Source of the DNA: an uncultured Rhodospirillales bacterium
GTDB lineage: Bacteria; Pseudomonadota; Alphaproteobacteria; Acetobacterales; Acetobacteraceae
DNA length: 37,730 nucleotides
Reading direction: 5' to 3'
NCBI GenBank assembly: GCA_903928895.1
Contig: CAIYSR010000078.1
Location: 1 to 37,730 of the forward strand
A model generated the notes under the pieces. The model saw only the letters and a list, made by a program, of their open reading frames with translations. It searched no databases and had not been told where the DNA came from. The position numbers were made by a program, and so were the translations under genes. Of the stretch, positions 1-37,730 are shown one piece after another (position 1 is the first letter of the stretch; each line of letters starts with the position of its first letter).

Positions 1-59
1 CACCACGATACTGGGGTCCCCGCTCGCCTGTCGCCCATACCAGCCCAAGCCAAACGGAT

Positions 60-101
60 AAAAGTTTTTTGCTTCTTTTTTTCAAAAAAGAAGCGCTTGC
101 C
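60..101 (+). repeat. Dispersed AT-rich hairpin element, copy A (left-half form)
   Basis: This element has a T-rich lead (AAAAGTTTTTT), then an inverted repeat at 71-94 (GCTTCTTTTTT, two loop bases, AAAAAAGAAGC), then GCGCTTGCC. The same unit recurs in both orientations at seven other places in the window. It lies 26 bases before the rsmB-like gene, so here it probably ends transcription from a gene to the left of the window. A terminator role is inferred from the hairpin and from its position in all copies. Bases 1-59 show nothing else I recognise. Confidence 0.85.
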
Positions 102-127
102 TTTCTCTACCCCAGGACTCACCGCGC

Positions 128-2006: not shown

Positions 2007-2921
2007 ATGAACCTGCCCGACGAGCCCGTCTACCTCCCCTTCGAAGCCGGCCCCTTCCGCATGGCGATGGGGTTGATCGCGCGCACCCCGGATGACCTGG
2101 TGACGATCGACACAAACTATCCCGCCGAAATGGCCGAACGCCGCATGCTGCTCGACACCAGCCGACACGAGGTCTTCGGCGCCGAGCCCGGCAGCGCGGC
2201 CGCCGGCGCCGAACTGCTGGACCGTCTCGCCGATCTCCTCCCGCGCCGCTTCCCCGACGGCTTCACCCGCGACGGCAGAATGCTGCACAATCGGCTGACC
2301 GGCGAGACCTGGGACCTCGCCACCCCGGCGCTCGACCCGCTGGAGATCGCCGGCCGCCTGGTGCAGGAGGATTTCTGCCTCCTCCGCCTGTCCCCCGAAG
2401 GCCCCATCCTCACCGCTGCCGTGCTGTGCTTTCCTTCGCGCTGGCGCCTGCACGACAAGCTCGGTCACCCCCTCGCCGCCATCCATGGGCCGGTCCCGAT
2501 CTATGCCGAACGCCTGGCCCGCCCGGTGGATCGCCTGATCGCCACGCTGCGCGAAGGCAAGCTGGTCGAGCGTCTCAACTGGTCCGTCACCGACGATCCC
2601 GCCTTGTCCCAGCCCGTCGGCAAACACTTCCGCCGCACCCACAATCCGGACATCACCGCGGCCAACGCCGGCGAGACCCTGTTCCTGCGCGTCGAACGCC
2701 AGACCCTCGGCCTGCTGCCCAACAGCGGCGCCGTGGTCTTCGGCATCCGCGTCCACGTCTACCCCATCGCCCGCATTGCCGCCGTCCCCGAGGTCGCCGC
2801 CCGGCTTGCCGACGCCCTGCGCGCCCTGCCCGAGGAAATGAGAGCCTACAAAAGCCTCCCCCCCTTCGAATCCGCCTTGCTCGCGTATCTCGATGCGCAG
2901 TCCCCCAATGCCAAAGGTTGA
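2007..2921 (+). CDS. DUF3445 protein, haem-dependent oxidative N-demethylase-like
   Basis: This 304-residue protein belongs to the DUF3445 family. Some members are named the alpha subunit of a haem-dependent oxidative N-demethylase (dimethylamine oxidation). Recognisable blocks are the N-terminal PFRMAMGL region, a central CFPSRWRLHDKLGHPL, IHGPVPIYAERL, the NWSVTDDP stretch and C-terminal RVERQTLGLLPNSGAVVFGI. The first ATG that gives a family-like N-terminus is at 2007, 44 bases after the GNAT stop. No ribosome site better than CGGAG is visible. There is no signal peptide, so it is probably cytoplasmic. The partner subunits of the dimethylamine enzyme are absent here, so the physiological substrate is unknown. 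The stop codon lies inside repeat copy B. Confidence 0.82.
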   Translation: MNLPDEPVYLPFEAGPFRMAMGLIARTPDDLVTIDTNYPAEMAERRMLLDTSRHEVFGAEPGSAAAGAELLDRLADLLPRRFPDGFTRDGRMLHNRLTGETWDLATPALDPLEIAGRLVQEDFCLLRLSPEGPILTAAVLCFPSRWRLHDKLGHPLAAIHGPVPIYAERLARPVDRLIATLREGKLVERLNWSVTDDPALSQPVGKHFRRTHNPDITAANAGETLFLRVERQTLGLLPNSGAVVFGIRVHVYPIARIAAVPEVAARLADALRALPEEMRAYKSLPPFESALLAYLDAQSPNAKG

Positions 2922-2990
2922 AAGTTTTTGGCTCCCTTTTTTCAAAAAGGGAGTGCTGTTTTTTTTGACAAAAAGAACCAAAAAACTTTC
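2920..2990 (+). repeat. Dispersed hairpin element, copy B (full two-hairpin form)
   Basis: This is a full copy of the dispersed element. An outer stem pairs GAAAGTTTTT (2920-2929) with AAAAACTTTC (2981-2990). Hairpin 1 (2932-2953) is CTCCCTTTTT / AAAAAGGGAG. Hairpin 2 (2958-2978) opens with GTT and closes with GAAC around a GAC loop. The linker between the hairpins is TGCT, the same as in copy E. Hairpin 1 has C-G pairs where other copies have T-A or C-G in other order, so pairing is kept while sequence changes. It begins inside the stop codon of the DUF3445 gene and precedes guaA, which fits a terminator or 3'-end element. Confidence 0.85.
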
Positions 2991-3064
2991 GCCCTTGGGA
3001 ATTCCTTGCGATCCCGCCAAGCTTATGCTGCAACGCAGCGCACCGAGACAGACAGGTGTTTGCC

Positions 3065-4615
<1,551 letters not shown>

Positions 4616-4657
4616 CCCCAACCGCAACAAAGCCTAAAGCCTGCCCCGCTTCCTTCC

Positions 4658-4683
4658 CCCTCTCCCCTCTTTGGGGGAGAGGG
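4658..4683 (+). terminator. GC-rich hairpin downstream of guaA
   Basis: CCCTCTCCCC (4658-4667) pairs with GGGGAGAGGG (4674-4683) around a short T-rich loop, 42 bases after the guaA stop. The flanking GCCGGGGTGAGGG is part of a proteobacterial intergenic palindrome type seen in many genomes. There is no T-run directly after it, so it may be a repeat that also acts as a 3'-end stabiliser. Confidence 0.6.
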
Positions 4684-4734
4684 CCGGGGTGAGGGTCGTG
4701 CAACCAACGAAATCTCGCCGCCCGCCCCAAGAAA

Positions 4735-4778
4735 GCAAGCAAGCACTTCTTTTTTGAAAAAAGAAGCAAAAAACTTTC
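4735..4778 (-). repeat. Dispersed hairpin element, copy C (inverted left-half form)
   Basis: This copy has the reverse orientation of copies A and G: CAAGCACTTC, a hairpin CTTCTTTTT / AAAAAGAAG (4746-4766), then CAAAAAACTTTC. It lies between the convergent 3' ends of guaA (+) and the AT-rich HsdR-like gene (-), where a bidirectional terminator would serve both. The rest of the gap up to 4874 shows no further feature. Confidence 0.8.
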
Positions 4779-4874
4779 ATCCGTTAAGCGGTACACTGGC
4801 CGCAAACCACCGTCCCCACCCCCCAAACCCCGTCGCCCCCACAATCACTCTCCCGTCGAAACGCCCTTCCTGTC

Positions 4875-5981
4875 CTAAGGGTCGCTAATTGTTATGCTGA
4901 ATTCACCCTCACCCGCCATCTTTGCTTCCCTGGGCGAGTTATCGAACATTGCGTCAAATTTGGGATTTCCGGTCGCCGACCCTTTGATAAAGACATATCT
5001 ATACTCGAACGATAGCATCCCCTTGAATTTATTCCCCTCAATAAATCCGATGGCGTCCGTATATACCGTACAGTCAAATCCGAACGGAATTAGCATCTCT
5101 GGCATTCCAGGAAACAAAGATGCACTTTGGCCTGGAGGCAATCTCCCAGAGATTACGTTTTGGAATATGGTAGGTCGAGCGAGTTCCACGGACACAAACT
5201 CGTCTCCAGAAAAAAACTTGTAATCATCTGAAAGCCCAGCTAACCGATGAAGCTGCGTGATCGATTGAAATGGATTGATCAACGTCACGTGTGCCACGAG
5301 GCGTCCGTCGTCATCACGGCGAACTTCGCCTCCACGGATGCCAGCCACAACACCGTTTAGTGTACCGTTCAATTGAAGGAATGGATGATCGGACAAATGT
5401 TCGCCATATCGAACCTCCCCTCCAGCGATATCCACTCGCGGACCTATTCCCAAACCCAACGGCTTACCCGGCATTGGTCGAACTCGCTCAGATCGCTTTC
5501 TGATGGCCGCCGGTCCGATAATATTAAATATTTCAACTATTTTTTGGTCCATATTTTCAAAACGCCATGTCAGTATCGGGCAATCGAGTTCACTTGTCAC
5601 ATACAGTCGGAACTCACGACCGTTTGTCAGCAGGAAATGAAATGCTCCGATCTCCGGATGCGCTGAATACGTGTGGGCTTGTTCGGCATCGTCCTTGGTT
5701 AATATAGAAGACGGAGCCTTAACTTCGACAGTAAAGCGGCCATACGAAATTACTTCGCAAATATAGTCAGCTCGCCCAGCCAAAGGGGGGTCCTTGCTCG
5801 GATTTTTGCGACCGAGAAATGCACGATCATACCTTAATTTTACTTCAGTCCGGATGTTATCCTGAGTCCCGTGCGCAAATCCGAGACGATGGAGAAGTGG
5901 CCGTACAATAATCTCGCGAACATCCGTCTCATTCATTGCATCAAAGTCGGGTATTGGCATGGAATCAGCACCGCTTGTCAT
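4875..5981 (-). CDS. Solitary PD-(D/E)XK protein with HsdR N-terminal-like nuclease domain
   Basis: This 368-residue protein's first ~160 residues look like the type I restriction enzyme R-subunit N-terminal nuclease fold. Visible are RPLLHRLGF (27-35), E46, D72 in GRADY, E86 and K88 in VEVKAP, and the Q101-x3-Y105 pair of RecB/HsdR-like nucleases. The last ~200 residues match nothing I recognise and seem rich in beta strands. There is no helicase domain, no HsdM or HsdS nearby, no signal peptide and no membrane segment. The gene is far more AT-rich than its neighbours (23 G+C of 60 at 4981-5040), which points to transfer. The ATG at 5981 has a GAGA 8 bases upstream; M8 at 5960 is an alternative start. 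A defence or DNA-processing nuclease is inferred from the fold only. Confidence 0.72.
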   Translation of the reverse strand: MTSGADSMPIPDFDAMNETDVREIIVRPLLHRLGFAHGTQDNIRTEVKLRYDRAFLGRKNPSKDPPLAGRADYICEVISYGRFTVEVKAPSSILTKDDAEQAHTYSAHPEIGAFHFLLTNGREFRLYVTSELDCPILTWRFENMDQKIVEIFNIIGPAAIRKRSERVRPMPGKPLGLGIGPRVDIAGGEVRYGEHLSDHPFLQLNGTLNGVVAGIRGGEVRRDDDGRLVAHVTLINPFQSITQLHRLAGLSDDYKFFSGDEFVSVELARPTIFQNVISGRLPPGQSASLFPGMPEMLIPFGFDCTVYTDAIGFIEGNKFKGMLSFEYRYVFIKGSATGNPKFDAMFDNSPREAKMAGEGEFSITISDP

Positions 5982-6141
5982 TTTTTACATCTCGATCACC
6001 ATTTTGACCGGTTTGCCTCGATTCCGCTATCCCGATTTAACGAAACCGGACAGAATGAGCGACTGCTCGGAAGTCTATCTGCGGCGCAACTTGAACCACC
6101 CCAGCGCAAACTTCGGTCGGCCGCGTCTCGCCACCACCCGC

Positions 6142-6163
6142 CATATCCCATTGACATATCCCA
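6142..6163 (+). promoter_or_regulatory. Direct repeat and -35-like box upstream of vapBC
   Basis: CATATCCCA occurs at 6142-6150 and again at 6155-6163, 13 bases apart, and a TTGACA sits at 6151-6156. VapB-type antitoxins autoregulate by binding repeats near their promoter, so this is a plausible operator. No good -10 box or ribosome site is visible before the ATG at 6186. The rest of 5982-6185 shows only the composition change from AT-rich to GC-rich DNA. Confidence 0.35.
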
Positions 6164-6185
6164 CCCCACCCCCCACCTTCCCCGC

Positions 6186-6407
6186 ATGCCCCGCACAACC
6201 CTCTTCCTCTCCAACCGCTCCCAGGCCATGCGCCTCCCCAAGGAAGTCGCCTTCCCCGAGGGCGTGAAGCAGGTTGCCATCGTCCGCGACGGCAACCGCC
6301 GCATCATCACCCCCGCCGACTCCCTCTGGGACGACTTCTTCGACGCCCCCGGCATCGACCTCCCCCCCCGCGCCCAGCCCGCCGCCCAGGAGCGCGAAAC
6401 CTTCTAG
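6186..6407 (+). CDS. vapB: VapB-type antitoxin (AbrB/SpoVT fold)
   Basis: This 73-residue protein begins MPRTTLFLSNRSQAMRLPKE. That is the N-terminal DNA-binding hairpin of the VapB/VagC branch of AbrB-like antitoxins (pattern LF-x-NRSQA-R-PK). The middle VKQVAIVRDGNRRIITP completes the swapped-hairpin domain. The C-terminal WDDFFDAP and its tail form the usual toxin-wrapping segment. It would neutralise VapC by direct binding and repress its own operon. The start at 6186 is the first ATG that keeps the family N-terminus; no Shine-Dalgarno is visible, so a leaderless message is possible. The TAG stop is followed at once by the vapC ATG. Composition is GC-rich like the host, unlike the AT-rich gene to its left. 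Confidence 0.88.
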   Translation: MPRTTLFLSNRSQAMRLPKEVAFPEGVKQVAIVRDGNRRIITPADSLWDDFFDAPGIDLPPRAQPAAQERETF

Positions 6408-6812
6408 ATGCTCCGCTACATGCTCGACACCAACCTCTGCATCCGTGTCCTGCGTGACCGCCCCGCCGGCCTCCGCCCCCGCTTCAACGCCGAGGCTGAC
6501 AGCCTGTGCATCTCCACCATCGTGCTCACCGAACTCCTCAACGGCGCCGAGAAATCCGCCCGCGCCGACCACAACCGCCGTGAAGTCGAACGCTTCGCCG
6601 CCCGCCTCGAAATCCTCCCCTTCGACGCCAACGCCGCCGCCCACGCCGCCGACATCCGCGCCACCCTCGAACGCGAAGGCAAACCCATCGGCGGCTATGA
6701 CCTCCTGATCGCCGGCCACGCCCGCAGCCGTGGCCTCATCGTCGTCACCGGCAACCTCGGCGAATTCACCCGCGTCCCCGCTCTGCGCTGCGAGGACTGG
6801 GAAGCACCCTAA
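6408..6812 (+). CDS. vapC: VapC-type PIN-domain ribonuclease toxin
   Basis: This 134-residue PIN-domain toxin is predicted to cleave a specific RNA (often initiator tRNA or the rRNA loop in this family) when freed from VapB. The metal-binding acidic residues are in place: D7 in YMLDTN, E42 in LTELLNG and D98 in GGYDLLIAGHA. Then comes VVTGNLGEFTRV, where the usual T-N/D-N is T-G-N. The C-terminus RVPALRCEDW matches the MvpA/VapC family. Length is normal and the frame is intact, so the pair looks functional. It starts directly after the vapB stop without its own ribosome site, so it is translationally coupled. Its last four bases overlap the convergent MAPEG gene. Confidence 0.9.
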   Translation: MLRYMLDTNLCIRVLRDRPAGLRPRFNAEADSLCISTIVLTELLNGAEKSARADHNRREVERFAARLEILPFDANAAAHAADIRATLEREGKPIGGYDLLIAGHARSRGLIVVTGNLGEFTRVPALRCEDWEAP

Positions 6813-7228
6813 AACACCACCACCGCCGCCCGAACCGCCATCGCCAGCAGCACCAGCGAACTCACCGTGAACAGCGCGAACCGCACCATGATCACGTTCA
6901 CCGTCGCCTGCACCAGGCTATGCGCCACCCGCAGCGCCACATAGGCCCAGGCCAGCCCGGCATTCAGCCCCGCCCCCTCCCCCACCAGCGCCACCACCAG
7001 CGCCACCGCGTAGAACAGCGTCGGCTGCTCCATCAGATGATTGTAGTTGTCCGCCTTCCAGCGCACCGAAGCCGGCAACGCCGCCGCCAACTCGCCCGCC
7101 GTCCGCCGTGGATCGAGCTTCAGCCGCGCCGCCCGGATCGCCGGAATGCGGGTGGCATACAGCCACGCCCACATCACGAAACTCCACAGCACCAGGGCGA
7201 TCAGCGGGGCCAGTATCGGACTGCGCAT
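6809..7228 (-). CDS. MAPEG-family membrane protein
   Basis: This 139-residue integral membrane protein of the MAPEG family (membrane-associated proteins in eicosanoid and glutathione metabolism) has four hydrophobic helices, at about residues 4-26, 70-84, 90-108 and 115-137. The family block is NYNHLMEQPTLFYA, with RVAHSLVQ following in helix 3. Bacterial members often act as glutathione transferases or peroxidases, but many are uncharacterised. I choose the ATG at 7228 because GGAGAGG ends three bases before it; a longer start at 7240 would place that ribosome site inside the gene. It is convergent with vapC, overlapping by four bases. The specific substrate cannot be inferred. Confidence 0.85.
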   Translation of the reverse strand: MRSPILAPLIALVLWSFVMWAWLYATRIPAIRAARLKLDPRRTAGELAAALPASVRWKADNYNHLMEQPTLFYAVALVVALVGEGAGLNAGLAWAYVALRVAHSLVQATVNVIMVRFALFTVSSLVLLAMAVRAAVVVF

Positions 7229-7398
7229 GGGCCTCTCCATTCACTACCACGGCACCGCCGCCGCGGGACGCCCACCCTAGAATCGAACCCCGCCCCGGCA
7301 AACCCCCAGGCGCCTTGCCATGTTGTGGTCCGCCACCCGATCAGCGAAACTATCCCGTGCGCTGGCCCCCCGACCCACTGCCATCACGGAGAACCACC

Positions 7399-7824
7399 AT
7401 GTCCGACCCATCCGGCACCGGCGACGCCGCCGACCCCTGGCGGCTGCAAACCCCGCCGCTCAGCTCGGAATTCACCCTCCACCGCGGCGTCGTCGATGGC
7501 CGCGACGTCCTGGTTTGCACCGTCGGCAAAACCATCCTGCACTACGATGCACGCTGCATCGAGCACCTCCACGCCATGCTCACCGCCCGCGCCGACTGGG
7601 TCGAACTCGGCTCGGCCGACGAGCAGAAAGACGCCAAACCCGGCACCGTCGAAGCCTGGGCCCGCGCGCCGGACAACCCGATCGGCGGCTGGTACGGCCT
7701 CAAGAAAGGCCTGCGCGGCCGCTTCGCCATGTACATCCCCCCGCTCCTCGAACGCCTCGGCCTGGCCGAAGTCGAGCACAACCCCAGATCGAACCGCATG
7801 CGGGCAGTCAAGCCGGGTGGCTGA
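7399..7824 (+). CDS. Conserved small protein of unknown function
   Basis: This 141-residue soluble protein has no signal peptide or membrane helix. It begins MSDPSGTGDAADPWRLQTPP. It holds the stretches TILHYDARCIEHLHAML and WVELGSADEQK, and then GGWYGLKKGLRGRFAMYIPP. These read like conserved family blocks and I recall similar bacterial hypothetical proteins, but I know no function. The ATG at 7399 is preceded by CGGAGAA at good spacing. It is followed 37 bases later by the UPF0114 gene and may form an operon with it. Codon use is like its neighbours, which supports a real gene. The gap 7229-7398 between it and the divergent MAPEG gene must hold both promoters; I see no clear boxes. Confidence 0.72.
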   Translation: MSDPSGTGDAADPWRLQTPPLSSEFTLHRGVVDGRDVLVCTVGKTILHYDARCIEHLHAMLTARADWVELGSADEQKDAKPGTVEAWARAPDNPIGGWYGLKKGLRGRFAMYIPPLLERLGLAEVEHNPRSNRMRAVKPGG

Positions 7825-7861
7825 AACCCGTCACCCAGCGGCGCCCACGAAAGACCCCACC

Positions 7862-8392
7862 ATGACAACACCCCGCCCCATCCTGGAGCGCCTGCTGGAA
7901 CACACCTTGTTCCGTGCCCGCTGGCTCCTCGCCCCCTTCTATGTCGGGCTGGTCATCGCCATGGCAGCCCTCCTGGTGGTGTTCGGCATCGAACTTTACC
8001 ACCAACTTTCCATCCTCCTCACCATGACGCCGGCGCAGGCGATTCTGATGGCGCTGTCGCTGATCGACCTGTCGCTGACCGGCAACCTGCTGCTGATCGT
8101 CATCTTCTCCGGCTACGAGAACTTCGTCTCCAAGATCCATGTCGGCGAAGACGACGATCGGCCGGGCTGGATGGGCACGGTCGATTTTTCCGGCCTGAAA
8201 ATGAAGCTGATCGCCTCCATCGTGGCGATCAGCGCAATCGCCCTGCTGCGCTCGTTCATGGAACTGGCCGAGGGTGACGCGCTGGACGAGCGCCGGCTGC
8301 ATTGGCTGGTCATCGTCCACCTGACCTTCGTGCTCTCCGGTGCCGTTCTCGCCATCATGGACTTCGTCGCCAGCAAGGTCAGCAAGCACTGA
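7862..8392 (+). CDS. UPF0114 (YqhA-like) membrane protein
   Basis: This 176-residue inner-membrane protein matches the UPF0114/YqhA family. The family opening is LLEHTLFRARWLLAPFYVGL. A first helix (about 22-44) is followed by LTGNLLLIVIFSGYENFVSKI, a strongly conserved family block, then GLKMKLIASIVAISAIALL and a last helix ending DFVASKVSK. About four membrane segments are expected. The function of the family is not established. The ATG at 7862 follows a weak GAAAGACC ribosome site. The 120-base gap to the convergent binding-protein gene (8393-8512) has no strong hairpin. Confidence 0.9.
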   Translation: MTTPRPILERLLEHTLFRARWLLAPFYVGLVIAMAALLVVFGIELYHQLSILLTMTPAQAILMALSLIDLSLTGNLLLIVIFSGYENFVSKIHVGEDDDRPGWMGTVDFSGLKMKLIASIVAISAIALLRSFMELAEGDALDERRLHWLVIVHLTFVLSGAVLAIMDFVASKVSKH

Positions 8393-8512
8393 TCAACGGG
8401 CACTGGCCTCAATAGGCATTGGGCAGCTCACGGCCTCCCCTCCGCCAATCCAGCCCATCGGCCCGGCAAAACTCCGCCCTGGATCGACGCCCGCCTACGC
8501 TCCGCCCCGCCC

Positions 8513-10108
8513 TCAGCCGACGGCGAAATTCCGCGCCCGAAAATCCATCACGAACGACCGCGCCGGCGACCACGTGATATCCCGGCGCTTGGCGGTGAAA
8601 TTCGCCGTCTCATGCATCACCAGCACCGCCGGATCATCGCGCTCGACGATCTCAAGCACCCGCCGGAAATCCGCCGCCCGCGCGGCGATATCGGTCGAGG
8701 TCTGGATGCGCTCGATCAATGCCGCCGCCTCGGCGTTGCGCCAATAGCCTCCCTGCTCAAGCTCGCCATTGGCGCCGAACGTGGTCGGAAAAAACGACAC
8801 CGGATCGTTGAAAAACGCGGAGAAGGAGTTGTCGTTCATCGCCCGCTCGACCTTGCCATCCAGCACCTGGCCCCAGTTCTCCCGCATCTGCAAGTCGACA
8901 TTGATGCCCACCGCCTTCCACATCTCGACCAGGATCTGCGCCGTCGAAACCTGGTTGGTGTAGTAGTTCGCCAGCACCTTGAACGGGATCGGCTCGCCCC
9001 GGTAGCCGGCCTCGCCGAGCAGCCGCCGCGCCTCCGCCGGGTCGAACCCGATGCCCTTCCAGTCCGTCACATACATCGGGCCGAAATAGTCGAATTGCAG
9101 ACCATTGGGCACCCGCGTCCGTCCCCCCCAGATCGTCTCCACAATCACCTTGCGATCGACCGCATGGGCCAGCGCGCGGCGAATCCGCGGGTCCTTCAGA
9201 ATTTTGTGGTTCTGATCGAAAATCAGGCCGCGGATATTGGTGATCAGCCCGCCCACCACGTGATGCCGGGCGCTGCTCTCGATGCTCGGGATCTGGTCCG
9301 GCGTGATGTCGCAGGCGAAATCGAACTCGCCGGCCTTCAACCCGTTGATCCGGCTCGCCAACTCCGGCACTTCGAGAAAACGCAGCGTCTTGATCGGCGG
9401 CCGCCCGCCCCAGTAGCCATCGAACGCCTCCAGGATCAGCCGGTTCTCCGCGCGGTACTCGCTGACCTGATAGGGCCCCGTGCCCACCGGCTTGCGCGCC
9501 CAATCCATCCAGCCCGCCGCCTCGCGAAACCCGCGCGGATTGAGGATGCACCCCGTCCGCATCGACACCCGCCCCTCCAGCGTCACATCCGGCACCCGGT
9601 TGACGAACCGCACCGTATGGCTGTCGACGATCTCGATCTTCTCCAGCGCCGGATAGGCCGCCTTCGCCCCCGCCCGAACCTTCGCCGGCGCCCAGCGCGG
9701 ATCAGGCTTGCCGCCCGCTAGCGGCGTTTCATCCCCGGCCCCGAACAGCCGCTCGCCATAGCTCCACGCGACATCCTCGGCGGTGAAAGCGTCGCCATTG
9801 TGATGCTTCACGTTTTGCCGCAGGGTGAATTCCAGCGTGCGCCCGTCAATCCGCCGCCAGCTCTCCGCCAGCCCCGGACGCAGCCCGAGATCGCCCGTCC
9901 AGTTCGTGTCGATCAGCGGCTCGATGTAGAGATTGTAGTGCCGCGTCCCGACATTCGAAGCCTCAAACAAAATGTCGAGCGTGTTGGACGTCGCCAGCCG
10001 CTGCACCGCCACCGTCACCGTCGGACGCGTGTCCGACTGCGCCACCGCAAAACGCGGCAACGCGGCCGCAGCAGTCGCAATCGCGGTCCGGCGGGCAATA
10101 CGGGGCAT
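8513..10108 (-). CDS. Orphan family-5 ABC transporter solute-binding protein
   Basis: This 531-residue periplasmic solute-binding protein is of the DppA/OppA type (SBP_bac_5). The N-terminus MPRIARRTAIATAAAALPRFAVAQS is a twin-arginine-like signal ending AVAQ. The mature part has the family pattern LRPGLAESWRRIDGRTLEFT, then LRQNVKHHNGDAFTAEDV, and later DPRIRRALAHAVDRKVIVE. I choose ATG 10108 because GGAGA lies six bases upstream; an ATG at 10120 also fits and would use no good site. No permease or ATPase gene is adjacent, so it must work with a transporter elsewhere, or with the importer at 15.6-21.3 kb. The ligand could be a peptide, a sugar or an opine. Confidence 0.88.
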   Translation of the reverse strand: MPRIARRTAIATAAAALPRFAVAQSDTRPTVTVAVQRLATSNTLDILFEASNVGTRHYNLYIEPLIDTNWTGDLGLRPGLAESWRRIDGRTLEFTLRQNVKHHNGDAFTAEDVAWSYGERLFGAGDETPLAGGKPDPRWAPAKVRAGAKAAYPALEKIEIVDSHTVRFVNRVPDVTLEGRVSMRTGCILNPRGFREAAGWMDWARKPVGTGPYQVSEYRAENRLILEAFDGYWGGRPPIKTLRFLEVPELASRINGLKAGEFDFACDITPDQIPSIESSARHHVVGGLITNIRGLIFDQNHKILKDPRIRRALAHAVDRKVIVETIWGGRTRVPNGLQFDYFGPMYVTDWKGIGFDPAEARRLLGEAGYRGEPIPFKVLANYYTNQVSTAQILVEMWKAVGINVDLQMRENWGQVLDGKVERAMNDNSFSAFFNDPVSFFPTTFGANGELEQGGYWRNAEAAALIERIQTSTDIAARAADFRRVLEIVERDDPAVLVMHETANFTAKRRDITWSPARSFVMDFRARNFAVG

Positions 10109-10509
10109 GCTGGTCTCCATGAACACACGCCAGACATAGCCGGCCACGATTGCGAACATGTGATGGACCGGCGTCGGTTTCGTGACGGCCTCGCCTCTCA
10201 GCGGCAAAGGAAGCAGCAGGCAAGCGCTTCATTTTTGCAAAAAAGAAGCAAAAAACCCCGACCCATTCAGGCCCTGCGGTGGATGCGACCGACCATCTTC
10301 CCTTCGAAATCGCGCAGTCCGCAGCAACGGATCGGCAACCCATCAGGACTTCGCGCTTATCGATATCGGCACACCGGCAGATCACCACGCTCCTGTCCCG
10401 ATAGCACTCAACCCAAACCGCCGGAGCGAACGCGCAACTGGATAAGACTTTGGGGCAACATCACTTCAAATCGTTGAGCTCCACGGGATCATACCCCGAC
10501 CAGCCTGCC
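10109..10509. other. Gene-free stretch between FtsK 3' end and binding-protein 5' end
   Basis: These 401 bases hold repeat copy D (10219-10258) and no gene I can support; the short frames in it lack ribosome sites and family features. The left part (10109-10210) should carry the promoter of the orphan binding-protein gene on the - strand. Bases 10259-10445 are ordinary high-GC sequence. The + strand changes from C-rich to G-rich close to 10450-10510. Confidence 0.6.
10219..10258 (-). repeat. Dispersed hairpin element, copy D (inverted, imperfect)
   Basis: GGCAAGCGCTTC is followed by an imperfect hairpin (CTTCATTTTTG / CAAAAAAGAAG) and CAAAAAACCCC. It has the same orientation as copies C and H. 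It lies downstream of ftsK, which is transcribed leftwards, and upstream of the orphan binding-protein gene, so it can end ftsK transcription. Confidence 0.75.
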
Positions 10510-12948
10510 TCACTCGTCGTCTCCCCCGGTCCGCCGCGCGAGGACCTCGCGTTTGCCGACGTGGTTGGCGGGCGTGACGATGCCTTCCTTTTCCATTTGT
10601 TCGATGAGTTTGGCGGCACGGTTATAGCCGATGTTGAGGTGGCGCTGGAGGAAGCTGGTGGAGGCCTTGCCTTCGCGGCTGACGAGGTCAACCGCCTGGT
10701 CGAACATCGACATTTCGCTGTCGTAGCTGCCGCCGGCAGAGGCGGTATCGTCGTTGCCTTCGGGCATTTCGGTGACTTCGTCGACGTAGTCGGGCTCGCC
10801 CTGGGTGCGCAGGTGGGCGACGACGGCTTCGACTTCCTTGTCGGCGACGAAGGGGCCGTGGACGCGGCGGATGCGGCCGCCGAGCATCATGTAGAGCATG
10901 TCGCCCTGGCCGAGGAGTTGTTCGGCGCCCTGTTCGCCGAGGATTGTGCGGCTGTCGAACTTGCTGATGACGGTGAAGCTGATGCGGGTGGGGAAGTTGG
11001 CTTTGATGGTGCCGGTGATGACGTCGACCGAAGGGCGCTGGGTGGCCATGATGACGTGGATGCCGGCGGCGCGGGCCTTTTGCGCCAGGCGCTGGACGGC
11101 GATTTCGATTTCCTTGCCCGCGACCATCATGAGGTCGGCCATCTCGTCGATGACGACGACAACGAGGGGGAGTTTTTCGAGCGCGAGGGGTTGATCCTCG
11201 AAGACCGGTTTGCCGGTCTCGCTGTCGAAGCCAGTCTGGACGCGGCGGATGACGACTTCGCCGCGGGCGCGGGCTTCGGCGACGCGGTCGTTGTAGCCGG
11301 CGATGTTGCGCACGCCGAGCTGGGACATCGAGCGGTAGCGGCGGTCCATTTCGCCGCAGGCCCATTTGAGGGCGGTGACGGCCTTGGCGGGTTCGGTGAC
11401 GACGGGGGCGAGGAGGTGGGGGATGCCTTCGTAGATCGACAGCTCCAGCATCTTGGGGTCGATCATGATGAGGCGGCAGTCGTCGGGCGAGTGCTTGAAG
11501 AGCAGCGAGAGGATCATGGCATTGATGCCGACCGACTTGCCGGAGCCGGTGGTGCCGGCGACGAGGAGGTGAGGCATGCGGGCGAGATCGGCGATGATGG
11601 CTTCGCCGTCGATGGTTTGACCGAGCGCGAGGGGGAGCGTGGCCTGAGAGGTGATCCAGGGCTGGGAGTGCAGGAGTTCGGTGAAATAGACGGTTTCGCG
11701 CTTCTGGTTCGGCACCTCGATGCCGATGACGTTGCGGCCGGGGACGGTGGCGATGCGGACGGCGAGCACGGAGAGCGAGCGGGCGACATCGTCGGCGAGG
11801 CCGATGACGCGGGCGGCGCGAATGCCCGGCGCCGGTTCGAGCTCGAAGAGGGTGACGACGGGGCCGGCGGTGTGTTCGACGATGCGGCCTTCGACCCCGT
11901 ATTCGGCGAGCACGGTTTCGAGCAGGCGGGCGGTGGCGTCGAGCTGCTCGGTCGTGGGGCCGCCGAGGGTGGCGCGGTCGGGGGCGGGGGCGAGCAGGTC
12001 CATGGAGGGGAACTGCCACGTCTGTTCGAGCGGCAGCGGAATTTGCTCCGGGGCGGGCTTCTTCCCGGTGGCGGGTTTGGGGGCGCGCGCAGCGGCGCCG
12101 GGGAGGGGGGCGGGGCCGGCAATGGCGGAGGGGAAGGCGTTGGGCGCGGGCACCTGGGGGGCGCCGAGCCTGGGTTCGGCGCGGGTGGCGGCCGGCTGCG
12201 CCGGCGGTCGCGGGGGGGCGGCTTTGGTGGTGGTGGTGGCGCCGTCGATGCGGTGGAACAGGTGCACGCCGAATGCGGTGGCGCGTCGCCCGAGCCGGCC
12301 GAACAGCCCGGCACCGGCGCGGCCGTGGGTGACGCCGGTGCGGGCGACGGCGCGGGCGGTATGGTAGTCGCGCGCGGTCAGGCCGAGGGCGAGGAGGACC
12401 AGCAGCAAAGCGAGGATGGAGCCGAGTGCCGCCATGGCGATGCCGCCGTATGGGCCGAGCAGGTCGGTGCCGGCGGCGAGAGCGAGGCCGCCGATCAATC
12501 GTCCGGCGGCGCCGCCAGGGCCGGCGGCGGTGGGCCAGGGGCTATCAAGCGGAACGGCGGCCAGCAATGCGGCGAGGACGGGCAGGGCGGCAAGCAGGGC
12601 AGCGAGGCGAAGCGGCACGCCGCCAAGGCCGCGATGGGCGCCGATGCGCCAGGCCCAGGCGAAGGCCGCCAGGGCAGGCAGCGCGCCGGCGAGGCCGAAG
12701 CCCTGCAACAGCAGGTCGGCCGCGATGGCGCCGGGCAGCATGGCGTGGTTGTGGGCCGGGCGCAGGGTCGCGGTGTTGAGCGAGGGGTCGGCGGGGTCGT
12801 AGCTGGCGAGGGCGACGGCGAGCAGCACGCCGGCCGCGAGCAGCAGGCCGGCGGTGGCGCGGTCGAGCAGGATGCGCAGACGCGAATGCAGTTCCGGCGA
12901 TGCGAAGGCCGACGCGGGACCGGGACGGGTCTGGGCACCCAACGCCAT
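10510..12948 (-). CDS. ftsK: FtsK/SpoIIIE DNA translocase
   Basis: This 812-residue septal DNA pump resolves chromosome dimers and clears DNA at division. Hydrophobic helices fill the first ~185 residues (the membrane domain). A proline- and alanine-rich linker follows to about residue 310, and then the RecA-like motor. Its Walker A is GTTGSGKS near residue 468 and its Walker B is VVVVIDEMADLM. The C-terminal gamma domain holds YNRAAKLIEQMEKEGIV, the winged helix that reads KOPS sites. Length is typical for alphaproteobacteria and shorter than E. coli FtsK because of the linker. The ATG at 12948 has AGGAG nine bases upstream. It is downstream of the lactonase gene on the same strand, separated by 105 bases with a small tandem repeat. 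Confidence 0.96.
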   Translation of the reverse strand: MALGAQTRPGPASAFASPELHSRLRILLDRATAGLLLAAGVLLAVALASYDPADPSLNTATLRPAHNHAMLPGAIAADLLLQGFGLAGALPALAAFAWAWRIGAHRGLGGVPLRLAALLAALPVLAALLAAVPLDSPWPTAAGPGGAAGRLIGGLALAAGTDLLGPYGGIAMAALGSILALLLVLLALGLTARDYHTARAVARTGVTHGRAGAGLFGRLGRRATAFGVHLFHRIDGATTTTKAAPPRPPAQPAATRAEPRLGAPQVPAPNAFPSAIAGPAPLPGAAARAPKPATGKKPAPEQIPLPLEQTWQFPSMDLLAPAPDRATLGGPTTEQLDATARLLETVLAEYGVEGRIVEHTAGPVVTLFELEPAPGIRAARVIGLADDVARSLSVLAVRIATVPGRNVIGIEVPNQKRETVYFTELLHSQPWITSQATLPLALGQTIDGEAIIADLARMPHLLVAGTTGSGKSVGINAMILSLLFKHSPDDCRLIMIDPKMLELSIYEGIPHLLAPVVTEPAKAVTALKWACGEMDRRYRSMSQLGVRNIAGYNDRVAEARARGEVVIRRVQTGFDSETGKPVFEDQPLALEKLPLVVVVIDEMADLMMVAGKEIEIAVQRLAQKARAAGIHVIMATQRPSVDVITGTIKANFPTRISFTVISKFDSRTILGEQGAEQLLGQGDMLYMMLGGRIRRVHGPFVADKEVEAVVAHLRTQGEPDYVDEVTEMPEGNDDTASAGGSYDSEMSMFDQAVDLVSREGKASTSFLQRHLNIGYNRAAKLIEQMEKEGIVTPANHVGKREVLARRTGGDDE

Positions 12949-12962
12949 GGGGCGGCTCCTGA

Positions 12963-12998
12963 GAAAAGGTGAGGTCCGGGGAAAAGGTAAGGTCTGGG
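12963..12998 (-). repeat. 18-bp tandem near-repeat in the ftsK leader
   Basis: Two adjacent 18-base copies (12963-12980 and 12981-12998), each beginning GAAAAGGT on the + strand, differ at two positions. They lie 15-50 bases upstream of the ftsK start and so would be in its promoter or leader. No further function is evident. Confidence 0.6.
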
Positions 12999-13053
12999 AT
13001 GAAGTGTAGCGTACAAGAGGTTGAGGGGCGAAGAGGTTTGGCGGCGGACGGGG

Positions 13054-14082
13054 TCAGAGTTCGATGATCTCGACCCAGTTGGCGCCGCGGCCGACCGCGA
13101 TGGCACCGGTGGGGACGAGGACGCCGTCGGGCTCGATGGCGTAGCAGCCGAGGCGGCCGGAGCCGAGGCCGGCGCAGAGCAGGAACCGGCCGGAGGGAGC
13201 GATGGCGAAACCGCGCGGGGTGGGTTCGCTGGGCACGCGGCACAGCGGGGTGAGGGTGCCAGTGGTGGGGTCGATGGCGAAGCCGTTCAGCGTGTCGGTC
13301 AGGCGTTCGCTGGCGTAGAGGAAGCGACCGTCCGCGGTGACATGGATGTCGGCAGCCGCGACCGGCAGCGGAACCGCCGGGGGCAGCAGCGAGACGATCT
13401 GCCGCTGCGCCAGGGCTCCGGTGTCGGGGTCGCGCCCATAGGTGATGATGGTGCCGTCGAGTTCGTTGACGACGTAGAGCACCCGGCCGCCCTGGCCGAA
13501 GGCGAGGTGGCGCGGCCCGGCGCCGGCCGGGGTGCGGGCGGCGACCTGGACGGCGGGCGCGAGGCGGCCGGTGGCGGCGTCGAAGGCCTGGCACAGGATG
13601 GCGTCGCCGCCGAGGCTGGCGGCGTAGAGGAAGCGGTTGTCGGGGCTGGGCAGGGCGCTGTGCGCCTTGGGCGGGGTGGCGAGGATTTGCGCCGGGTCGC
13701 CGGCCAGACCGTTCTCGGTGATCGGGTTGGCTGCCAGTCTGGCGCCGCTGTACGAGGCGCTGAACAGGGTGCGGCCGGTCGCGTCGGTGCTGAGGTAGCA
13801 CATGCTGTCGGCCAGGGTGGCCAGGGACAGGAGGGTGAGTTTGCCGGTGGTGGGGTGGATGGCGAAGCTGGCGACCGGCCAGGGTTCGGCGCGGAGGCCG
13901 GCATAGAGGCGGCTGCGGTCGGGCGAGATCGCCAGCGGCAGGCTGCCGGCGGAGCGGGCATCGGTGCCGGGTACCTCGGTACGGTCGAGTTCGCGCAGCG
14001 CGCCGGTGGTCTGGTCGAAGGCCAGGGTGGTGATGTGCTGGTCGTCGGCGCAGGAGACGTAGACGATGGTACGTGGCGGCAT
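13054..14082 (-). CDS. Beta-propeller lactonase (6-phosphogluconolactonase/YbhE-like)
   Basis: This 342-residue cytoplasmic protein of the lactonase family (seven-bladed propeller, Pgl/YbhE type) opens sugar-acid lactones in known members. The start MPPRTIVYVSCADDQHITTL is the first blade. Repeated units such as LPLAISPDRSRLYAG, LPSPDNRFLYAASLGG, GPRHLAFGQGGRVLYVVNE and GFAIAPSGRFLLCAG mark successive blades. There is no signal peptide. It is divergent from the glucarate-dehydratase-like gene, with 70 bases between start codons. A shared promoter region and a joint role in sugar-acid catabolism are therefore likely: lactone opening followed by dehydration. The exact lactone is not readable. 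A 3-carboxymuconate lactonase role is a less likely alternative. Confidence 0.85.
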   Translation of the reverse strand: MPPRTIVYVSCADDQHITTLAFDQTTGALRELDRTEVPGTDARSAGSLPLAISPDRSRLYAGLRAEPWPVASFAIHPTTGKLTLLSLATLADSMCYLSTDATGRTLFSASYSGARLAANPITENGLAGDPAQILATPPKAHSALPSPDNRFLYAASLGGDAILCQAFDAATGRLAPAVQVAARTPAGAGPRHLAFGQGGRVLYVVNELDGTIITYGRDPDTGALAQRQIVSLLPPAVPLPVAAADIHVTADGRFLYASERLTDTLNGFAIDPTTGTLTPLCRVPSEPTPRGFAIAPSGRFLLCAGLGSGRLGCYAIEPDGVLVPTGAIAVGRGANWVEIIEL

Positions 14083-14152
14083 GAGGGTTCCCCGGGTGGC
14101 CGGATGCGGCGATGTGCGCGACTATGGCAGCCGGAGCAGGCGGGAGGAAACC

Positions 14153-15421
14153 ATGGCGCGAGGAATGCGGGTGGCGGAGGTGCGGGTGACGCCGATTGCG
14201 TTCCGCGACCCGCCGTTGCTGAACGTGGCCGGGGTGCATGAGCCGTGGGCGTTGCGCAGCATCATCGAGGTGGTGACCGAGGATGGGCTGGTCGGGCTCG
14301 GCGAGACCTATGGCGAAGAGGTGACGCTTGCCGACCTGCTGGCCTGCGCGCCGGCGCTGGTGGGGGTCGTTCCGTTCGATCTGAATGGGGTGCGGCGACG
14401 GATCAACGAAATCCTGCACGGGCATGACGAGGCGCCGGCGATGATCCCGGCCTCCGGCACGCGACGGGTGAATGTCGCGTTCGGGGCGTTCGAGGTGGCG
14501 ATGCTGGATTTGCAGGGGCAGTTTGCCGGGGTTCCGCTGCATGTGCTGCTCGGGGGCGCCGTGCGCGAGCGGGTGCCTTACAGCGCCTATCTGTTCTACA
14601 AGTTCGCCCGCCACCATGGCGATTCCGGCTATCCCACGGATGATTGGGGCGAGGCATTGAGCCATGCCCAGATGGTGGATCAGACGCGGCGGATGGTCAG
14701 CGACTACGGGTTCGGCTCGATCAAGCTGAAGGGGGGCGTGTTCGAGCCGGAGTATGAGATCGAGACGTTGCGGGCGATCAGGTCAGCCTTTCCGGATCAT
14801 CCGTTGCGGATCGACCCCAATGGCGGCTGGAGCGTGGCGACGACGTTGCGGGTGTTGCCGCAGCTTGACGGGTTGCTGGAGTATCTGGAGGACCCCACGG
14901 GGACGCTGGAGGAGATGGGGGAGGTGGCGAAGCAGGCCTCGATGCCGCTTGCGACCAACATGGTGACGGTGGAGTTCGGGCATATTCCGAAGACGCTGGC
15001 GCTGGGGGCGGTGCAGGTGATTTTGAGCGATCATCATTACTGGGGCGGGCTGCGGTCGACGCAGCAGCTGGGGCATCTGGGGCGGGTGTTCGGGCTGGGG
15101 ATTTCGATGCATTCGAACTCGCATCTGGGCATCAGCCTGGCGGCGATGACGCAGGTGGGCGCGACGTTGCCGAACCTCACCTATGCTGCGGATTCGCATT
15201 ATCCGTGGCAGGTGGACGAGGTCATCGCCGGCGGCAAGCTGCGCTTCGAGGGCGGTGCGCTGGCGTTGCCGCAGGGCCCGGGCCTGGGGGTGACGCTCGA
15301 TCGCACGGCGTTGGCCGCCCTGCACGCGAATTTCCTTGCCTGCGGCATCCGGCGTCGCGACGATGGCAGCGAGATGCGCAAGCACCAGCCGGACTGGCAG
15401 GGCGCGCGGCCAAGATTCTAA
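14153..15421 (+). CDS. Enolase-superfamily sugar-acid dehydratase, glucarate dehydratase-like
   Basis: This 422-residue protein is predicted to abstract the proton next to a carboxylate and eliminate water from an acid sugar. Its active-site layout is that of the glucarate dehydratase branch. It has K191-L-K193, metal ligands D221 (RIDPNGGW), E246 (YLEDP) and N269 (ATNM), and the D293 (SDHHY) / H320 (SMHSNSH) dyad, with spacings like those of E. coli GlucD. An N-terminal capping domain precedes the barrel. The ATG at 14153 has GGGAGG at ideal spacing. It diverges from the lactonase and precedes an ABC importer after repeat copy E. Glucarate or galactarate are guesses; other members of this branch accept other acid sugars. 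Its codons mostly end in G, unlike genes left of 10.5 kb. Confidence 0.87.
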   Translation: MARGMRVAEVRVTPIAFRDPPLLNVAGVHEPWALRSIIEVVTEDGLVGLGETYGEEVTLADLLACAPALVGVVPFDLNGVRRRINEILHGHDEAPAMIPASGTRRVNVAFGAFEVAMLDLQGQFAGVPLHVLLGGAVRERVPYSAYLFYKFARHHGDSGYPTDDWGEALSHAQMVDQTRRMVSDYGFGSIKLKGGVFEPEYEIETLRAIRSAFPDHPLRIDPNGGWSVATTLRVLPQLDGLLEYLEDPTGTLEEMGEVAKQASMPLATNMVTVEFGHIPKTLALGAVQVILSDHHYWGGLRSTQQLGHLGRVFGLGISMHSNSHLGISLAAMTQVGATLPNLTYAADSHYPWQVDEVIAGGKLRFEGGALALPQGPGLGVTLDRTALAALHANFLACGIRRRDDGSEMRKHQPDWQGARPRF

Positions 15422-15426
15422 TGGGT

Positions 15427-15497
15427 GAAAGTTTTTTGCTTCTTTTTTTCAAAAAAGAAGTGCTGTTCTTTTTTGAAAAAAAGAACCAAAAAACTTC
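15427..15497 (+). repeat. Dispersed hairpin element, copy E (full two-hairpin form)
   Basis: This is the clearest full copy. An outer stem AAGTTTTTTG (15429-15438) pairs with CAAAAAACTT (15487-15496). Hairpin 1 (15439-15460) is CTTCTTTTTT / AAAAAAGAAG. The linker is TGCT. Hairpin 2 (15465-15486) starts GTTC and closes GAAC. As RNA it would form a three-way junction. It lies six bases after the dehydratase stop and before the importer genes, so it may cut or weaken transcription between them. Confidence 0.88.
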
Positions 15498-15563
15498 TAT
15501 CCGATGGCTTCGGATTTGAATGTGCGATCCGGCACGGAGATGCCGGACCAAAGGGAGGCGATG

Positions 15564-30995: not shown

Positions 30996-31038
30996 GGAAG
31001 TGTTTCTTTTTTTGAAAAAAAGAAACAAAAAAACTTTG
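30996..31038 (+). repeat. Dispersed hairpin element, copy F (right-half form)
   Basis: After GGAAGT comes a hairpin at 31002-31026 with twelve paired bases, GTTTCTTTTTTT / AAAAAAAGAAAC, around a single G (a shorter stem is likely in practice). CAAAAAAACTTTG follows. It corresponds to hairpin 2 plus the right outer arm of copies B and E; the stem foot is GTTTC/GAAAC instead of GTTCT/AGAAC, with pairing kept. It lies 42 bases after the ppk2 stop. Confidence 0.8.
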
Positions 31039-31080
31039 CCCGTGGCTTCGCCGTGGATGAAACGATAGACTCCAAGAAAT

Positions 31081-31122
31081 AAAAGTTTTTTGCTTCTTTT
31101 TTTCAAAAAAGAAGCGCTTGCC
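31081..31122 (+). repeat. Dispersed hairpin element, copy G (left-half form)
   Basis: This copy is nearly identical to copy A: AAAAGTTTTTT, the hairpin GCTTCTTTTTT / AAAAAAGAAGC, then GCTTGCC. It lies 43 bases right of copy F, so here a right half precedes a left half, the reverse of the order in full copies B and E. Confidence 0.85.
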
Positions 31123-31141
31123 TGCCCCGTTCCTGCTTGGG

Positions 31142-37569: not shown

Positions 37570-37601
37570 GGGGAAGCGCTTCTTTTTTGAAAAAAGGAAT
37601 A
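37570..37601 (-). repeat. Dispersed hairpin element, copy H (truncated)
   Basis: GGGAAGCGCTTC is followed by TTTTTTGAAAAAAGGAAT, an inverted-orientation copy cut short on its right side and lacking the CAAAAAACTT arm. It starts ten bases after the M20 stop and would serve as the terminator of the usp-ftsH-M20 operon. Confidence 0.7.
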
Positions 37602-37730
37602 CTCCGACTCCCTGAGAATGCGTGAAAAGGGTGTTGCGCCGGCTCGGTAGTGTCGATTCTAGTTTGGCGATGATCGGCAAGCGCTTTCTCAAGGAACCTG
37701 CCCGGCAAGCGCTTTTGGCGTTGGCGCGCG
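37602..37730. other. Right edge of window: repeat-like motifs, possible partial frame
   Basis: GGCAAGCGCTTT occurs at about 37677 and GGCAAGCGCTTTT again near 37707, each like the foot of the dispersed hairpin element but without its T/A-rich stem. A frame from ATG 37670 (MIGKRFLKEPARQALLALAR) is open to the edge. It has no ribosome site and I do not recognise it, so a real gene start is unproven. Confidence 0.25.

What the first reader, a model, noticed from the sequence alone, without database searches (positions are those of the whole stretch)
2920..15497. Dispersed two-hairpin intergenic element with compensating base changes
At least eight copies (60, 2920, 4735, 10219, 15427, 30996, 31081, 37570) of one element lie in gaps next to gene ends. 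Full copies B (2920-2990) and E (15427-15497) fold as two hairpins joined by TGCT inside an outer stem AAGTTTTT/AAAAACTT, a three-way junction. Hairpin 1 is CTCCC/GGGAG in B and CTTCT/AGAAG in E; hairpin 2 has a T-G pair in B where E has C-G, and GTTTC/GAAAC in F. Sequence changes while pairing is kept, so the structure itself seems to be selected. Half copies (A, C, D, F, G, H) suggest the two hairpins can move or be lost separately. All copies sit 3' of a gene where the neighbour is visible, so a terminator or 3'-end role is the simplest view.
Basis: partly seen in the sequence, partly recalled or inferred. Interest (0 to 1): 0.7.

Follow-up and report, generated by a model that had tools for sequence, protein, structure and literature searches.

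The report
Gene-end hairpin repeats in Acetobacteraceae
A short hairpin-forming DNA repeat has been copied to a large number of places in this bacterium and some of its relatives, mostly just after genes, where some copies look able to stop transcription and where jumping genes often land; it resembles known bacterial repeat families but seems to be an undescribed one.

Summary
In detail: all eight copies are there. They are copies of one ~45-60-nt unit (AACGGATAAAAGTTTTTTG, an A/T hairpin, a GCGCTT.. tail), not of a three-way-junction element. Units occur singly, head-to-head ('+-', B and E) or back-to-back ('-+', F/G).

The genome holds 286 AAGTTTTTTG (3 in the reversed control). Model hits: 71 of 249 Acetobacteraceae genomes; in a class-wide draw of 337, only 2, both in-family.

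Compensating changes are strong inside the hairpins (70 doubly changed cells against 20 shuffled) but absent in the outer 'junction' stem (22 against 21). G-U and A-C deviations on the sense strand are equal in the arms (19:17), so selection on RNA is not shown. Nine orthologous copies show 8 compensated pairs, yet 30 of 50 changed pairs are broken.

Copies follow stop codons and avoid divergent gaps. Hairpin-plus-U-tract signals are common in '-+' (28 of 38 strands), rarer in '+-' (8 of 58).

No REP transposase (Y1_Tnp) was found in this genome. Two insertion sequences land in the unit: 7 of 7 and 22 of 32 ends read.

Best reading: a REP-like mobile repeat family, undescribed in my searches, partly usable as terminators.

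The parts
50..108 (+). copy A: single unit upstream of the gene 128-1423; the gene on its other side lies beyond the contig start
   Evidence: orthologous unit in G003 identical over the hairpin and its 5' flank
2910..3000 (+). copy B: head-to-head pair '+-' (arms CTCCC and GTTC), begins at the stop codon of the gene 2007-2921
4735..4790 (-). copy C: single unit, about 120-127 nt after the stop of the gene 3056-4615 (guaA by recall)
10219..10260 (-). copy D: degenerate single unit between two minus-strand genes (8513-10159 and 10510-12948)
15417..15508 (+). copy E: head-to-head pair '+-' (arms CTTC and GTTC), core 7 nt after a stop codon
   Evidence: decayed ortholog in G003, absent in G004
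30996..31050 (-). copy F: minus unit of a back-to-back pair '-+'
31069..31129 (+). copy G: plus unit of the same '-+' pair; terminator-like signal of the pair on the minus strand only
37570..37599 (-). copy H: minus unit, interrupted in its hairpin
37600..37730 (+). end of an IS630-family insertion sequence inserted into copy H; the contig stops inside it

Best explanation
The element is a REP-like, non-autonomous repeat whose basic piece is one unit: a conserved outer strand (AACGGATAAAAGTTTTTTG), a roughly 10-bp A/T hairpin with an exchangeable first pair (C-G, G-C or T-A), and a GCGCTT(C/G)CCTTCC tail. Shown: the unit is highly repeated, often in inverted pairs, either head-to-head ('+-') or back-to-back ('-+'), and at the few sites compared it comes and goes between species. 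Shown: base pairing is kept inside the hairpin. Inferred: it spreads by copying at the DNA level with an enzyme that recognises the hairpin; that enzyme was not found, and the usual Y1 (RAYT) transposase is absent from this genome. Inferred: copies survive at gene 3' ends because they are filtered out of genes and promoters. Where two units lie back-to-back, the outer strands can meet as A-tract/stem/loop/stem/U-tract, on both strands in 11 of 19 such pairs, and can act as an intrinsic terminator. The '+-' form mostly lacks this signal and is at most a 3'-end or intercistronic structure. Shown: two insertion sequences use the units as landing sites.
For: Copy number 286 against 3 in the reversed control; four congeners hold 91-144 matches each. 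71 of 249 family genomes; in the class draw only 2 of 337, both in-family. Hairpins 97.3% paired against 90.1 shuffled, and 70 doubly changed cells against 20.1; the single-unit alignment gives 24 against 3.2. Turnover: the E site is empty in G004; at the A site G001 and G002 have two overlapping genes and no element; the gap after the 2007-2921 gene holds '+-' here, '-+' in G003 and G001, and nothing in G002. Form sorted by context in the own genome: '-+' 9 of 19 in convergent gaps against '+-' 2 of 40, p = 0.0003. Terminator-like signal on 28 of 38 '-+' strands against 8 of 58 '+-'. IS630-family 7 of 7 ends and a second IS 22 of 32 ends in the unit. Y1_Tnp absent from the own genome.
Against: No mobilising enzyme and no target-site duplication of the element itself was found; the one filled/empty comparison read closely, E against G004, showed no clear duplication. 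No expression data. Outer-stem letters of the two units of one element do not covary, so the central stem of '-+' may only reflect a shared unit sequence. F/G, the window's own '-+' pair, carries the signal only on the strand opposite to its flanking genes, and two of 19 '-+' pairs on neither strand. In the own genome convergent gaps are not enriched overall (8 of 60 against 4 of 29). In G004 '+-' also sits in convergent gaps. 30 of 50 changed pairs among orthologs are broken.
Confidence: 0.6

Rival explanations
1. One reading: the RNA structure itself is selected at each site as a terminator or 3'-end stabiliser. Copies are kept because the mRNA needs the fold.
For: Hairpin covariation. Position close behind stops: median 14 nt for 52 co-directional '+-' copies. 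Among 9 orthologous copies 8 compensated pairs against 3.2 shuffled (P = 0.0045) and 30 broken against 37.8 shuffled (0 of 2000 shuffles as low). First own-genome set: sense-strand G-U 37 against A-C 14 in the outer stem.
Against: The G-U excess did not repeat (relatives 17:15, held-out 12:15; all 67:46, p = 0.06) and is absent in the arms (19:17). A held-out strand prediction gave 7 right, 8 wrong. No covariation in the outer stem. 30 of 50 changed pairs among orthologs are broken. The E ortholog in G003 is decayed.
Confidence: 0.25
2. A classical MITE of an insertion sequence: the '+-' form has the outer strand as terminal inverted repeats and moves with an IS transposase, with a target-site duplication.
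For: Outer inverted repeats and high copy number. Several contigs end inside near-identical T-type copies, as expected of recent amplification.
Against: No IS with these ends was met (none was searched for systematically). The two ISs seen next to units insert into them and have other ends. Half units and '-+' pairs are common. No clear duplication at E.
Confidence: 0.15
3. A DNA-level signal (uptake sequence, nucleoid-protein or recombination site) that happens to lie at gene ends.
For: No robust strand asymmetry of deviations. Four A/T pairs are invariant in all 48 rows of one alignment and all 50 of the other, which share some copies. DNA uptake sequences in Neisseria and Pasteurellaceae also form inverted pairs that double as terminators between tail-to-tail genes (PMC1852404, passages read).
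Against: The conserved unit is about 45-60 nt long, against 9-11 nt for uptake signals (PMC1852404). Copies are rare inside called genes (4 of 77 own clusters). No binding data.
Confidence: 0.15

Closest known systems
REP sequences / REPINs / BIMEs (RAYT-associated)
   Same: Short intergenic palindromes in high copy number, often in inverted pairs, near gene 3' ends; used as IS landing sites (PMC1525189, abstract read)
   Different: No GTAG or CGTC tag in the consensus. No Y1_Tnp in this genome. A/T hairpin in a genome whose window is 68% GC. The survey of GTAG- and CGTC-tagged repeats reports CGTC repeats missing in Acetobacteraceae (PMC3733652, passages read)
DNA uptake sequences doubling as terminators (Neisseria, Pasteurellaceae)
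   Same: A repeated motif in closely spaced inverted pairs, frequent between convergent genes, forming terminator hairpins (PMC1852404, passages read)
   Different: Unit far longer and with its own internal hairpin; no link to competence tested
MITE-like intergenic units such as ERIC/IRU, RIME, NEMIS (recalled, not compared by any search)
   Same: Dispersed inverted-repeat elements that fold when transcribed
   Different: Two permuted arrangements of one unit; no Rfam family reaches its cut-off in the window

Membership tests
REP / REPIN | Short palindrome repeated in high copy in intergenic gaps | tested here: met
   286 core matches against 3 in the control; 4 of 77 own clusters overlap a called gene
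REP / REPIN | GTAG or CGTC tag at the foot of the hairpin (two main super-families) | tested here: not met
   Majority consensus of 50 units has neither
REP / REPIN | Y1 (RAYT/TnpA-REP) transposase in the genome | tested here: not met
   PF01797: 0 in the own genome. Of 7 relatives searched, G034 has one partial hit over the cut-off and G001 one below it; 5 have none
REP / REPIN | Arrangement in inverted pairs | tested here: met
   '+-' and '-+' pairs, 52 of 77 own clusters
MITE | Terminal inverted repeats | tested here: met
   Outer strands of '+-'
MITE | Target-site duplication | tested here: inconclusive
   E filled against G004 empty shows no clear duplication; other sites too diverged
MITE | Autonomous partner with the same ends | not tested
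   No systematic search; the ISs seen beside units have other ends
Intrinsic terminator | Hairpin directly followed by a U-tract | tested here: inconclusive
   At or below -12 kcal/mol: '-+' 28 of 38 strands (both strands in 11 of 19 pairs), '+-' 8 of 58. F/G on one strand only, B and E on neither
Intrinsic terminator | RNA 3' ends at the site | not testable with these tools
   No transcript data
Structured RNA element | Covariation of paired columns | tested here: met
   Hairpins yes; outer stem no
Structured RNA element | G-U tolerated over A-C on the transcribed strand | tested here: not met
   Arms 19:17; outer stem 67:46, p = 0.06, significant in the first set only
DNA uptake sequence | Short (about 9-12 nt) motif | tested here: not met
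   Conservation spans about 45 nt

The most novel reading that the evidence does not exclude
A REP-like family spread over Acetobacteraceae that moves without a RAYT enzyme: one hairpin unit, copied at the DNA level by another hairpin-recognising system, is arranged in two permuted inverted-pair forms. The back-to-back form has been taken up as bidirectional intrinsic terminators, while the units also serve as landing pads that keep two different insertion sequences out of genes.
Probability: 0.3. Interest if true: 0.65.

Novelty: new variant of a known kind. Interest (0 to 1): 0.45.

Why it matters
If right, REP-type repeats can spread without the one enzyme they are thought to depend on, and part of a bacterial family carries an easily recognised set of candidate terminators. 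It would also show how one repeat can shield genes by drawing insertion sequences to gene ends. In practice it accounts for many contig breaks in this genome and gives a marker for annotating gene ends.

Tried and rejected
Sense-strand G-U excess as proof of RNA selection: 37:14 in the first set (ungapped) or 38:16 (gapped). Not repeated in the two later sets (17:15 relatives, 12:15 held-out). Dropped.

Covariance-model strand score as predictor of gene direction: 7 right, 8 wrong among 15 co-directional held-out copies with at least 1 bit difference, out of 20 fetched; 3 were convergent and 2 below 1 bit. Dropped.

Terminator scan: the first run scored only the first 14 elements of each form (21 of 28 against 1 of 28). 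The full run on all 19 '-+' and 29 '+-' elements of those stretches gave 28 of 38 against 8 of 58. The full run is used; it weakens the contrast.

Y1/RAYT transposase: none in the own genome.

Intrastrand triplex (PIT/BoxC-like): considered, passages of PMC4666352 read; not tested.

Circular permutation of '+-' and '-+' through a circular intermediate: upstream flanks listed; by eye the two forms share little beyond about 11 nt, so not pursued.

A first count of gaps was biased, because some stretches had been extended over several copies. It was redone with 3-kb stretches only: 67 of 80 own and 42 of 51 relatives' stretches passed the length filter. The form-by-context comparison is kept.

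Element DNA against plasmids: no match; the low-complexity filter may hide it. IS protein pieces against NCBIfam and Pfam: none; the second piece has no match in plasmids.

Literature: seven searches listed no paper that I could see describing this element; one search searched six literal stretches of it and found 0 papers. Passages read: PMC12306157 (RepRanger), PMC3733652, PMC4666352, PMC2765452, PMC1852404. Abstract and outline read: PMC1525189. RepRanger predicts very many REPs in Lichenicola cladoniae, a member of this family (6,569 in its Table 3; its text says 1,369), so it may have counted such units there without describing them.
Full report
What was checked. The window is contig C78 of an unnamed 5.57-Mb genome of 191 contigs. 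Its nearest named relatives by one protein (GMP synthase by recall) are metagenome assemblies: Umea1p3_bin-407, 95% identical, and a Lake Pavin MAG, 94%. The ten-letter core AAGTTTTTTG occurs 286 times in the genome, and 3 times when read backwards. Gene calls come from my own codon-usage script, not from an annotation, and it misses A/T-rich genes; gene names are recalled.

Anatomy. Reading 134 AAGTTTTT hits in 61 own-genome sequences, a few of them chance, shows one repeating unit. It has an outer strand AACGGATAAAAGTTTTTTG, with frequent transitions in the first part. A hairpin follows whose foot is CTTC, GTTC, TTTC, CTCC or CTCCC with its complement. A tail GCGCTT(C/G)CCTTCC ends it. Units occur singly, head-to-head ('+-', B and E) or back-to-back ('-+', F and G). 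Of 77 own clusters, '+-' make up 32 (25 co-directional, 3 divergent, 2 inside called genes, 2 at edges), '-+' 20 (9 convergent, 9 co-directional, 1 inside, 1 edge) and single units 25. My pattern missed D and H, so some singles may be pairs with a worn partner.

Structure. Across 48 '+-' copies from five congeneric genomes, the two hairpins are 97.3% paired against 90.1% after shuffling, with 70 doubly changed cells against 20.1 and a covariation score of 0.235 against 0.107; none of 500 shuffles reached these three. The number of pairs with a double change (6 against 5.4) and of pair types (17 against 16.7) does not exceed the shuffles. In 50 single units the figures are 99.1% against 93.3% and 24 against 3.2. 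The outer stem, which would make the three-way junction, is 84.7% paired against 84.2% shuffled, with 22 doubly changed cells against 21.1. Within one element the outer strands of the two units are no more alike than strands dealt out anew, in '+-' and in '-+'. So the selected or copied structure is the hairpin; the outer stem pairs because both units carry the same sequence. B folds as a junction, E as one long hairpin.

RNA or DNA. If the sense RNA were selected, G-U should be tolerated and A-C not. In the first own-genome set the outer stem gave 37 against 14. With gap-aware pairing the own set gave 38:16, relatives 17:15 and a held-out own set 12:15; all together 67:46, p = 0.06. In the hairpin arms the count is 19:17 in 39 co-directional rows. 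A held-out prediction of gene direction by the model's strand score was right 7 times and wrong 8. I therefore do not claim selection on the RNA strand.

Orthologous copies. The element comes and goes among congeners. At E, G003 has a decayed copy and G004 none. At A, G003 has the same unit, G004 a '-+' pair, and in G001 and G002 the two neighbouring genes overlap by ATGA without it. After the 2007-2921 gene there is '+-' here, '-+' in G003 and G001, and nothing in G002. Thirteen orthologous pairs were aligned; nine with '+-' in both were counted. Eight pairs changed on both sides and stayed paired, against 3.2 shuffled (P = 0.0045). Of 50 changed pairs that are paired in the own genome, 30 are broken, against 37.8 shuffled. 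Compensation above chance and frequent decay go together, as expected of a mobile family with weak or patchy use at single sites.

Position. In 3-kb stretches (67 own, 42 of relatives) the 100 target gaps with a detected copy are 66 co-directional, 25 convergent and 9 divergent. The 53 flanking gaps, of which 4 hold a copy themselves, are 28, 4 and 21. Divergent gaps are avoided (p = 1e-5; own genome alone 5 of 60 against 12 of 29, p = 0.0004). The convergent excess (p = 0.009) comes from the relatives' sample only (own genome 8 of 60 against 4 of 29). Copies lie close behind stops: for 52 co-directional '+-' copies the median is 14 nt to the upstream stop and 42 to the next start. Counting only distances under 60 nt, units facing the stop with their outer strand have a median of 9.5 nt in the own genome (35 of 44 within 20 nt); units facing it with the tail have a median of 39 here (20 of 69 within 20 nt) and 9 in other genera (19 of 19). 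Short gaps made by the element itself could give much of this.

Two forms, two signals. On all 19 '-+' and 29 '+-' elements of the first own stretches, both strands were searched for a hairpin ending 0-1 nt before five or more T, at -12 kcal/mol or below: 28 of 38 '-+' strands and 8 of 58 '+-' strands have it. Eleven of 19 '-+' pairs have it on both strands and two on neither. F/G has it only on the minus strand, opposite to its flanking genes; B and E have it on neither. Many of these hairpins use the foot of the unit hairpins and would compete with them. In the own genome '-+' is the form found between convergent genes (9 of 19 against 2 of 40, p = 0.0003). Among relatives '-+' is convergent in 10 of 14 and '+-' in 2 of 19, but 6 single units in convergent gaps, several fetched as full-length matches, suggest that '+-' there is undercounted. 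I infer that '-+' can act as an intrinsic terminator, often in both directions. No transcript data were available.

Distribution. Model R2 finds the unit in 71 of 249 family genomes, 33 of 102 genera, at E 1e-5. In a class-wide draw 2 of 337 matched, this genome and another of the family. Among 35 genomes reached through loci, 9 matched: the two congeners; Roseomonas sp. GC11 (147), an Acidiphilium MAG (126), Gluconacetobacter asukensis (22), G. liquefaciens (15), Endobacter medicaginis (12), an uncultured Acetobacteraceae (2) and Pseudoroseomonas rhizosphaerae (1); scores were capped at 150. There were none in the sampled Acetobacter orleanensis, Komagataeibacter, Gluconobacter, Azospirillum and Thalassospira genomes. 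L103 was not held and not searched. In the best-scoring loci fetched from other genera, plus L091, I count 11 '-+', 1 '+-' and 18 single units.

Insertion sequences. Copy H is cut at 37600 by an element end. All seven places of that end in this genome, searched with up to 2 mismatches, sit inside the hairpin foot of a unit, in either orientation. Its protein start matches an annotated IS630-family transposase (54.5%, E 9e-5). A second insertion sequence, with end GCAATAAGAGCG, has 38 ends, near contig edges wherever the contig length is known. Of 32 read, 11 are followed by the hairpin side and 11 by the outer side of a unit, and 10 by other mostly A/T-rich sequence, some of which may be degenerate units. 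I infer insertion into AAGTTTTT with that stretch duplicated. REP sequences are known IS targets (PMC1525189, abstract).

Verdict. The three-way junction and RNA selection are not supported. The element works like a REP-type repeat. As a member of the described REP/RAYT families it fails two defining features: the tag, and the transposase in this genome. Seven literature searches turned up no description of it that I could see.

Noticed in passing
window 37570-37730; L259-L265: An IS630-family insertion sequence sits inside the hairpin of copy H; all 7 places of this IS end found in the genome are inside units of the element, in both orientations.
   Followed up: yes
L286-L315, L270, L271 (contig edges of the own genome): A second insertion sequence with end GCAATAAGAGCG (38 ends) lies in the AAGTTTTT of the units in 22 of 32 ends read; many contigs break there. 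Its family was not identified.
   Followed up: partly
L277, L278, L279, L284, L285: Contigs end inside near-identical T-type '+-' copies (GTTTC..GAAAGCGCTTTC..GAAAC), so true copy number may be higher than the assembly shows.
   Followed up: no
window 4875-5981: An open frame of 368 aa on the minus strand next to copy C, 48% GC against 68% for the window; possibly acquired.
   Followed up: no
L036, L223 (loop of '-+' pairs): Some '-+' loops carry an extra G/C hairpin (GGGGCGAAGCC..GGCTTCGCCCC) between the units; other loops share GACTCCAACGG / GGCGAAGCCA motifs.
   Followed up: no
window 6186-6812: A pair of short genes in tandem (73 and 134 aa) that looks like a VapB/VapC-type antitoxin-toxin pair by recall; not searched.
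   Followed up: no
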